Shown piece by piece: positions 36,826-38,835 of a DNA stretch of 64,000 nucleotides. Every line of letters starts with the position of its first letter. Within the stretch, counting starts at the first letter, position 1. Source of the stretch: Termitomyces sp. T153 (lineage: Eukaryota; Basidiomycota; Agaricomycetes; Agaricales; Lyophyllaceae); contig JACKQL020000024.1 of NCBI GenBank assembly GCA_018296165.2, positions 434,001-498,000 on the forward strand, given 5' to 3'. A model generated the notes under the pieces. It did no database searches, was not told the DNA's origin, and worked only from the letters and a program-made list of their open reading frames with translations. The position numbers and the translations under genes were made by a program.

Positions 36826-38835
36826 CTAAGCGTCAAGGTCAGCGTCATTGTCAGGCACCTCCATCACCCCTGCCTCCTCCCAATCTCCCTCTCTGACATT
36901 GTTCTCCTCCTGCTAGGCCAGGAAGGCCTGACAGTTGCACCGGTATCCTGCCAGAGTCGCCAATGTTCGCCTAGCAACAGTGTAATGGGCCCATGCCTCT
37001 AACAACTCCTCCCTCGCCACCTCCAGCTCCCTCTGGAACCGCCGTTCCACTCCCACCGCCCTCTCATCAAAGTCCATTAGCAACGCCGCTGCTGTTAGTG
37101 GTGTCGGCCAACCAAGGTCCTCACCCAGCCATTCCAGCTCGTCATCGCCAATCTGGTGCAAAGGCATGTTGCTCCAGGTCCCCTAGCAAAGTGATTAGTG
37201 ATCAAGAAACTAGCAAAAGAGAAAGACTTACCCTTCACCGGACTTTGGCTTCCTCAGCCCTCTCCTCCTCTTTGTCCTCCTCAGCCACGGCTGGGACAGC
37301 CTCAAGTTCCTCCTCGCCTTCAACCTCCATGTTGCTGGCCTCCCGCTCCGCCTCAGCGACCGTCACTAAGGAAGTAGTCTCCCTCATCTCCACATCCCCC
37401 GCTCCCTCCTTGCTAGCGACCGTTCGAGGTCGCTTAGCGCTAGTGACCAACATGGGGCTTGCTGCTCATTTCCATGCCAAGGGCACATCGCTGTCGCTGT
37501 CATTGTTGTCCTCGTCACTCTCCACCACCTCTCTGCTCTTCACCTTAGTGCCTCCACCACCTCTAACCACAGCTCCCTCCTGCGATGTTGGTAGGAGCAA
37601 GCTCGAATGCTTGACCTCAATGGGCTCCCCTCGCCTTGCCAACTCCCACTGTCGCTCCACAAAAGCCCTCGCATTCCTTACCAATGCCGTCTTTGTTGCT
37701 ATCCTCTTAGCAAACTTTCTGTCAGTGCTCCTCGATGACCGTCTGCTGTGCGAGCAGCTTTTCCTCGTACTGTTGCAGCAATAACAGGGCTGGACCCCAG
37801 TGGGGTACCAGCAGCCCTCTGGGTCATTATCGGCCCAGCAGTTGTCGCACTAGAAGAATTTGTTAGCGACACAGAAAGAAACAATTGCTAAGTGCTTACC
37901 GCTCCTTGCATGCACTTATACTCTTGTCACTTCTCTAGCGACACCGTTACTTTCCCCTTGGCCTTCTCTAACTTCACCCCAGCTCCCAGTCCAGTGTCCA
38001 CCACCGTCGAAGCCTTTTGCCAACAAAGGAGTGTTGCCAAGCGCTTGTCGGTAAACGTTTCTTCAATATCATCCTGCAAGAAAAAGTTAGCGAGCGTTGT
38101 CAAGAGTTAGCAAAAAAGAAGAAAAGGGACTCACTTCAATATCCTCGTCCTCCTCTTCCCGTGCCTTTCCCTTCCCCTTCCCTTTGCTCCTTGGAATTGT
38201 TGCTAGTCTTGGCAACATCGCCAACCCCCTAGCGATGCCGCCAGCCGCAGCCTTGGGAGTTGAGGGGCCCGCCTCTTGAATGTCCCCACAATTTGCTGCC
38301 TCATTGTCCCCACAACCCTCGCTCCATCCCTCCCCCCTCACCACCGCTAATGCACCTACCGGGTGCTGGAAGAAGAACTGGTCATTTGGCAACAATTCTT
38401 CAAAAAGCTGACATACCTTAGCAGTGTCGCTAGCGCTAGCGACTGCCAGGGCACTTACCATCATTCCCACAGTAAGGTCGTCCATTAGGAACTCCAAGGA
38501 GGGATTGACTGGCGCCTAGCAATCAAGTTAGAAATGTCATTAAAAGAATAAAAGCAAAGACTTACGAAATGAACGTCAAATGGGCGAACCCATTCCTCCC
38601 CCTTGTACTGCTCGTAGAATTGGCGACACTCTTTCTCGACAGTTGCCAACTCCGGCCACTCAACTCCACTCCCCGCGGTCTTGAACCATTGCAGCCATGT
38701 CTGAAAGATAGCAGTGACTGCCAAGCGAGGATCCTTCGCCAGGGAAGCACGAGCCACAGCAAGCAATCGGTTGACACGTTCCAGGAAAGCATGGGCCATC
38801 ATAGTTTTTTCGAACTGAGAGGCCAGATCGGACAT
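36826..38835 (-). pseudogene. Antisense five-exon gene of element C: Zn2Cys6-like protein
   Basis: Exons (minus strand): 38835-38566, 38515-38135, 38073-37900, 37849-37232, 37182-36826. All lengths are divisible by 3 (90, 127, 58, 206 and 119 codons with stop). The four introns are 50, 61, 50 and 49 bp with GTAAG/GTGAG donors and TAG/CAG acceptors. The start MSDLASQFEK follows a CT-rich leader. Exon 2 ends in a basic/acidic KGKGKGKAREEEDED stretch. Exon 4 opens with a cysteine cluster C-X2-C-X8-C-X8-C-X2-C-X6-C, then acidic SDEDNNDSDSD and Glu-rich regions. Exon 5 has a helical ELEVAREELLEAW. Four premature codons occur: TGA in exon 3 (codon 49), TGA at 37468-37466 and 37237-37235, and TAG at 36915-36913. 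Function unknown; a DNA-binding regulator is an inference. Confidence 0.78.

What the first reader, a model, noticed from the sequence alone, without database searches (positions are those of the whole stretch)
36826..38835. A five-exon antisense gene with a Zn2Cys6-like cluster inside a Ty3/gypsy element
Seen: on the strand opposite to gag-pol, five exons join through four GT-AG introns of 49-61 bp. Every exon length is a multiple of three, and every junction is phase 0. Exon 4 starts exactly at a cysteine cluster C-X2-C-X8-C-X8-C-X2-C-X6-C. The two LTRs enclose the gene, so it would travel with the element. Known: Zn2Cys6 clusters are fungal DNA-binding domains with CX2CX6C halves, and antisense ORFs are known in some plant Ty3 elements; I know of no such spliced gene in fungal ones. 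Inference: an element-encoded regulator, or a captured host gene. Four in-frame stops show this copy is dead.
Basis: partly seen in the sequence, partly recalled or inferred. Interest (0 to 1): 0.9.

Follow-up and report, generated by a model that had tools for sequence, protein, structure and literature searches.

The report
Spliced antisense gene in fungal retrotransposon
A jumping gene of a termite-farmed mushroom carries, on the strand opposite to its own replication genes, an extra six-exon gene for a cysteine-rich protein that natural selection has kept working and that may let the element control itself.

Summary
It lies on the minus strand between pol and the 3' LTR of a Ty3/gypsy element (LTRs 28853-29940 and 39014-40101). 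The fifth intron (38366-38416) holds an in-frame stop in 23 of 34 copies compared and is 49 or 52 nt in distant ones. The host is most likely Termitomyces: all homologues found are from that genus, within word-limited searches.
Exon 1 has at least 150 matches in the genome. In 32 copies all exon length changes are multiples of three, and 155 of 160 splice-site pairs are GT-AG. dN/dS between young subfamilies is 0.145-0.172. Of 17 copies with an unbroken pol frame, 15 show no stop at three antisense-exon probes. The window copy is dead.
The Cys cluster is kept in 31 of 34 copies, but is not a Zn_clus member by spacing or score. A palindrome, TTGACTG-N4-CAGTCAA, lies about 136 nt before the ATG and occurs 202 times in the genome (control 0).
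Best reading: an element-encoded, dimeric DNA-binding regulator; the function is inferred. Antisense genes in Ty3 elements are known (Boty brtn, Retand, Grande), so this is a new variant of a known kind.

The parts
28853..29940 (+). 5' LTR (TG...CA)
   Evidence: 5 differences to the 3' LTR over 1087 compared positions
30473..31438 (+). gag-like frame with a weak zinc-knuckle match
   Evidence: zf-CCHC E 0.11, below cut-off
31750..32658 (+). protease part of pol
   Evidence: Asp_protease_2 E 9e-6 (26.7 bits, cut-off 24.3); gag-asp_proteas E 3.9e-6 (27.8 bits, cut-off 28.2)
32534..34435 (+). RT-RNase H part of pol
   Evidence: RT_RNaseH_2 E 0.002, below cut-off; no RT model matched
34419..36383 (+). 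integrase and C-terminal part of pol, one in-frame stop at 35907-35909 in this copy
   Evidence: (Integrase_H2C2 E 1.6e-14; SH3_Tf2-1 E 0.016, below cut-off)
38566..38835 (-). antisense gene, exon 1 (helical domain; dN/dS 0.026 between two young copies)
38417..38515 (-). antisense gene, exon 2
38135..38365 (-). antisense gene, exon 3
37754..37849 (-). Cys cluster C-X2-C-X8-C-X8-C-X2-C-X6-C
   Evidence: kept in 31 of 34 places
38976..38993 (.). perfect inverted repeat TTGACTG-N4-CAGTCAA upstream of the antisense gene
39003..39013 (+). polypurine-tract-like run before the 3' LTR
   Evidence: function recalled, not tested
39014..40101 (+). 3' LTR

Best explanation
The Ty3/gypsy family of this (most likely Termitomyces) genome carries a resident accessory gene on the strand opposite to gag-pol, between pol and the 3' LTR. 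SHOWN by sequence: six exons and five introns, kept in copies 43-76% alike per exon; a product of 582 aa in one copy, with an N-terminal helical domain, a six-cysteine cluster followed by a helix, an acidic stretch and a long C-terminal coiled coil; purifying selection; copies without stops at the probed exons in most elements that have unbroken pol; a palindrome about 136 nt before the ATG in most copies checked. INFERRED: an antisense promoter sits in the stretch of about 180 nt between the 3' LTR and the ATG. The protein enters the nucleus, pairs through its coiled coil, and its (presumed zinc) cluster binds the inverted repeat. There it regulates its own promoter and possibly the element's sense transcription or chromatin. 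Its introns are not introns in the sense RNA that is reverse-transcribed, so the gene is copied with introns and can be expressed only from integrated DNA by antisense transcription. The reality of the gene I hold at about 0.97; the regulator mechanism at about 0.45.
For: Splicing. In one search, 8 of 10 annotated Termitomyces proteins that cover the 51-nt piece omit it exactly. Linkage: 94 of 150 exon-1 hits have an integrase hit on the opposite strand within 6 kb downstream, none on the same strand there; the integrase list held 148 of 1514 candidates; chance about 1.2% per copy. Selection: dN/dS 0.145-0.172 in five comparisons between the two young subfamilies; codon-position changes 36/33/115 in one pair, p about 5e-16. 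Intactness: of 17 copies with a pol frame of at least 1280 aa without stops, 15 have all three exon probes free of stops. Two sets of copies are identical over about 2.4 kb. No spliced retrocopy: 1 hit with 2 mismatches, reversed control 6 and 6. Cys cluster kept in 31 of 34 places and with the same spacing in annotated proteins about 30% alike (P0074, P0076). Palindrome: 202 sites, reversed control 0; 127-150 nt before the ATG in 31 of 34 exon-1 hits on contigs 1-7. Coiled coil 495-556 at high and helix 304-332 at moderate confidence.
Against: No expression, zinc-binding or DNA-binding data exist here. The cluster region has low model confidence and no solved fold matches. The palindrome also lies next to the polypurine tract and could be an RNA hairpin (-9.3 kcal/mol in sense RNA). 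It occurs in a sister family too, including a copy in which the antisense gene appears deleted (L059, L060). One copy with unbroken pol shows only part of the last antisense exon (C5:364555), so the protein may not be needed in cis. Within the old subfamily of the window copy dN/dS is 0.40-0.45, and one young pair gives 0.50 on few changes. In one search one annotated protein (P0022) reads through the 51-nt piece and another (P0010) cuts elsewhere.
Confidence: 0.55

Rival explanations
1. An antisense accessory protein with another job: for example, it blocks host silencing, helps nuclear entry or packaging, or directs integration. The cluster would serve protein or RNA contacts.
For: No significant Pfam or PDB relative. 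The first half of the cluster is acidic (WADNDPEG), unlike the basic stretch recalled for Gal4-type domains. The acidic stretch and coiled coil suit a scaffold as well.
Against: A palindrome at a nearly fixed distance upstream suggests an operator; basic stretches such as KRPRT suggest the nucleus (inference).
Confidence: 0.3
2. A captured host gene carried as cargo, still intron-bearing because it was taken up in antisense.
For: Six exons with ordinary short introns look like a host gene; antisense capture would keep the introns.
Against: No host homologue was recognised: 94 of 150 exon-1 hits have pol beside them, 56 unresolved; both large protein searches found only Termitomyces proteins of the same family. 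A decayed form also sits in a sister family (L059), so any capture is old.
Confidence: 0.3
3. The transcript, not the protein, matters: antisense RNA pairs with genomic RNA and tunes silencing.
For: The gene is fully antisense to the genomic RNA; such roles are discussed for plant elements (PMC7264820, passages).
Against: Selection acts on codons (115 of 184 changes at third positions) and keeps frame and splice sites.
Confidence: 0.05
4. A chance or decayed frame with no function.
For: The window copy has four stops; old copies show relaxed dN/dS.
Against: Conserved structure, low dN/dS between young subfamilies, copies without stops and matching annotations.
Confidence: 0.01
5. The palindrome is an RNA hairpin or polypurine-tract helper of reverse transcription, unrelated to the antisense protein.
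For: It sits just before the polypurine tract; the stem folds at -9.3 kcal/mol in sense RNA; present in L060, where the antisense gene appears deleted.
Against: The two single-mismatch variants seen (L003, L061) break a pair rather than compensate it.
Confidence: 0.4

Closest known systems
brtn, antisense gene of Boty-like Ty3 elements of Botrytis cinerea (Zhao et al. 2011)
   Same: Fungal Ty3-type element with an additional antisense gene; PMC7264820 lists it among genes between pol and the 3' LTR (passages).
   Different: The paper was not held, so sequence and introns were not compared. Other phylum (Ascomycota, recalled); homology untested.
Antisense ORFs of plant Retand elements (TRP28 domain, PF04195)
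   Same: Same position and strand; family-wide; predicted DNA binding; regulatory role proposed (PMC11963269, passages).
   Different: No TRP28 match here; the word intron does not occur in that paper's text; here there are five introns and a Cys cluster.
Grande gene23 of maize
   Same: Accessory antisense gene in the long 3' internal region, nuclear protein, own promoter (PMC7264820, passages and cited title).
   Different: No homology tested; plants.
HBZ of HTLV-1
   Same: Antisense gene of a retroelement that encodes a nuclear regulator (PMC11963269, passages; splicing and leucine zipper recalled).
   Different: bZIP protein, start in the 3' LTR (recalled); no sequence comparison made.
Fungal Zn2Cys6 (Gal4-type) regulators
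   Same: Six cysteines in two CX2C-led halves, second half X6 with basic residues, a coiled coil in the protein.
   Different: X8 in the first half, no Pfam match above cut-off, coiled coil far from the cluster.

Membership tests
Antisense accessory ORF between pol and 3' LTR (aORF-3R) | Between pol and the 3' LTR, opposite strand to gag-pol | tested here: met
   window; 94 of 150 exon-1 hits beside an opposite-strand integrase
Antisense accessory ORF between pol and 3' LTR (aORF-3R) | Present in most copies and conserved | tested here: met
   of 148 scored integrase hits 110 have exon 1 or the cluster exon on the opposite strand within 6 kb, 5 on the same strand, 33 none in the capped lists; dN/dS 0.145-0.172
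Antisense accessory ORF between pol and 3' LTR (aORF-3R) | Transcribed from its own antisense promoter | not testable with these tools
   no RNA data
Zn_clus (PF00172) | C-X2-C-X6-C first half | tested here: not met
   X8 in the first half; 2-8-8-2-6 in 31 of 34 places; family spacing recalled
Zn_clus (PF00172) | Score above Pfam cut-off | tested here: not met
   best 8.4 bits, cut-off 21, E 3.2, one of 7 pieces; not among the 22 families matched by 58 members at E up to 1
DUF3716 (PF12511) | Score above Pfam cut-off | tested here: not met
   15.4 bits, cut-off 22, one of 7 pieces; 3 of 58 members at E up to 1, best 0.12
Ty3/gypsy LTR retrotransposon | TG...CA LTRs and order PR-RT/RH-IN | tested here: met
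   no RT model matched and RNase H was below cut-off
brtn of Boty | Sequence homology | not tested
   sequence and paper not held

The most novel reading that the evidence does not exclude
A retrotransposon-borne regulatory circuit: each active element carries an intron-rich zinc-cluster regulator together with its own operator, the palindrome TTGACTG-N4-CAGTCAA. Transposition has spread about 200 such operators over one mushroom genome, so a transposon-made transcription factor acts on a dispersed regulon. The introns ensure that it is made only from integrated DNA.
Probability: 0.3. Interest if true: 0.8.

Novelty: new variant of a known kind. Interest (0 to 1): 0.62.

Why it matters
It shows that a basidiomycete Ty3 lineage keeps a multi-intron gene on its antisense strand under clear purifying selection (weaker than on pol). 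Introns can persist there only because the retrotransposed RNA is the other strand. It gives the open question of what antisense genes of LTR elements do a case with a candidate binding site, many natural copies and a farmed host fungus.

Tried and rejected
Five-exon model: rejected for six exons. A sense ORF as the real gene: the 269-aa plus-strand frame at 36975-37784 is at most 182 aa in three copies of another young subfamily (L044, L057, L046), and changes follow the antisense codon phase. Zn_clus and DUF3716 membership: below cut-off. Fold search: no hit with E up to 0.001. PDB sequences: only two chance-like hits, E 0.39 and 6.3. Inverted orientation in some copies: one search showed seven integrase hits on the upstream side (5 same strand, 2 opposite); for two (C88, C34) the list shows neighbouring copies; the other five were not followed. 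Relatives outside Termitomyces: none found, but the two large searches scored only about 8000 candidates sharing exact words each, so absence elsewhere is not shown. Antisense promoter: an AATAAAA-like run between palindrome and ATG, noted only. My first count used 35 aligned rows; L029 proved to be the same place as L057, so I recounted on 34 places.

Full report
What is there. The window is G000:C24:434001-498000 of a 72.4 Mb genome. A Ty3/gypsy-type element spans 28853-40101. Its LTRs of 1088 bp differ at 5 of 1087 compared positions, all CpG transitions. Pfam sees protease and integrase above cut-off and RNase H weakly, in Ty3 order. No target-site duplication is plain (GGTGG before, GCAGC after). 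But the two flanks joined match other places: of 40 scored hits 38 run across the join and 2 are the window flanks themselves. Most of those 38 have 3-6 fewer bases than the query, commonly 4, as a short decayed duplication would give. So the element sits as one insertion in an older repeat.

The gene. CTAAC or CTAAT lies 16-17 nt before the acceptor in those four introns; the fifth intron has none. I aligned 38 chosen loci. That leaves 34 places with 30 distinct sequences, all chosen because they match the antisense gene. Leaving out two disrupted copies (L005, L039), in 32 the five exons measured change length only by multiples of three. Introns 1, 3 and 4 change by other amounts in 20, 17 and 16 copies; introns 2 and 5 do not vary. 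155 of 160 splice-site pairs are GT-AG; the five others are three AT donors in intron 1, one AT acceptor in intron 4 and one GG acceptor in intron 5. The last exon was complete in only 23 of the 32.

The fifth intron. Of 10 annotated Termitomyces proteins covering it, 8 omit it exactly, P0022 reads through it and P0010 cuts elsewhere. In L063 and L064 it is 52 nt and in L061 49 nt, with the exons on either side still matching. In these distant copies (43-76% alike per exon; L061 has recognisable matches only to the first three exons and a weak one elsewhere) the junctions found fall at the same residues next to GT and AG, with some sites decayed, such as an AT donor in L062. Some annotated proteins differ slightly at the last junction (P0006, P0007, P0008).

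Copies, linkage and relatives. Exon 1 has 150 scored matches of 256 candidates, the cluster exon 150 of 257, the last exon 150 of 237, integrase 148 of 1514. 94 of 150 exon-1 hits have an integrase on the opposite strand within 6 kb downstream and none on the same strand there; 56 have none in the capped list; 119 of 150 have the cluster exon downstream at a median of 0.99 kb. Of 17 copies with a pol frame of at least 1280 aa without stops, 15 have all three antisense probes free of stops. One (C52) has a stop and a small deletion at the cluster; one (C5:364555) shows only part of the last exon. No spliced exon junction was found (1 hit with 2 mismatches, reversed control 6 and 6), as expected if the gene always travels within sense RNA. 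All 69 proteins found with the product of copy L048 are from Termitomyces, five of them near full length, and one partial protein of strain J132 is 100% identical over 70% of the query. A profile search gave 69 hits, all Termitomyces, 61 of them from strain T32_za158. The first search, with the cluster exon alone, gave 3, also Termitomyces. The host is therefore most likely Termitomyces; the genome itself is unnamed.

Selection. Nei-Gojobori dN/dS (my script) is 0.145-0.172 in five comparisons between the two young subfamilies, with substitutions 36/33/115 at codon positions 1/2/3 for one pair (p about 5e-16). By exon in that pair it ranges from 0.026 (exon 1) to 0.305 (exon 3). Three old copies against a young one give 0.162-0.181. 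Pairs inside one young subfamily gave 0.150, 0.173 and, on few changes, 0.50. Inside the old subfamily of the window copy it is 0.40-0.45. The end of pol gives 0.040-0.087 between the young subfamilies, 0.121 for the window copy against a young one, and 0.18 and 0.29 on few changes inside one young subfamily. So the protein is under real constraint, weaker than pol over the longer span. Pairs share ancestry and are not independent.

Death of this copy. Three of its four stops are CGA to TGA, one TGG to TAG. CpG density in the gene region is 4.0 per 100 nt here against 9.0 in L048, and about half of the 419 differences are C to T or G to A. The three TGA stops recur in some other copies, so they may be inherited or repeated hits at CpG; the TAG is private among the copies with letters there.

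The protein. No significant Pfam, PDB-sequence or PDB-fold relative. The AlphaFold2 model is poor overall (mean pLDDT 53.8). It shows an N-terminal helical domain and a helix 304-332 after the Cys cluster at moderate confidence, and a coiled coil 495-556 at about 90. The cluster spacing 2-8-8-2-6 recurs in members about 30% alike (P0074, P0076). 48 of 133 annotated proteins match a loose cluster pattern; many of the rest are partial or cut differently by the annotators. It resembles Zn2Cys6 but fails both tests I made.

The palindrome. Between ATG and 3' LTR lies TTGACTGAGGACAGTCAA (38976-38993), the only exact site in the window. The two arms with any four-base spacer occur at 202 sites in the genome, the reversed control at none. 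Of 24 distinct upstream stretches 21 have it exactly, 2 with one mismatch, 1 not. It also occurs in a sister family (L059) and in what looks like a deletion derivative (L060). It may be an operator or an RNA hairpin beside the polypurine tract.

What is known. [quoted passage not shown] PMC8365987 (passages) names brtn as the additional ORF of BcGypsy1. PMC11963269 (passages) states that 97% of Retand clusters carry antisense TRP28 ORFs; the word intron does not occur in its text. Seven searches of the open library showed no title or abstract start describing this Termitomyces gene (listings only, up to 20 rows each); an eighth, for DUF3716, found no paper. The kind is known; the intron-rich Cys-cluster version in a basidiomycete with a conserved palindrome was not seen in those listings.

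Noticed in passing
25130-26067 and 43673-44659: Direct repeats 85-90% alike flank the whole element about 18.5 kb apart, so it is probably nested in an older LTR-type element.
   Followed up: partly
38976-38993: Perfect inverted repeat TTGACTG-N4-CAGTCAA, 202 sites genome-wide, spacer variable.
   Followed up: partly
L059, L060: A sister family with the same palindrome; L059 has what looks like a decayed antisense gene, L060 has pol joined by deletion almost to the palindrome.
   Followed up: partly
G000:C5:363093-365322 (coordinates): A copy with an unbroken 1283-aa pol frame but only part of the antisense gene's last exon: the gene may be dispensable in cis.
   Followed up: no
P0012 (Termitomyces J132_02359): Annotated 909-aa protein joins this antisense protein with Pfam PF14223 and PF22936; probably a fused gene model.
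   Followed up: no
28853-40101 and copies: Old copies have lost many CpG sites (C to T), suggesting methylation-driven decay in this fungus.
   Followed up: partly
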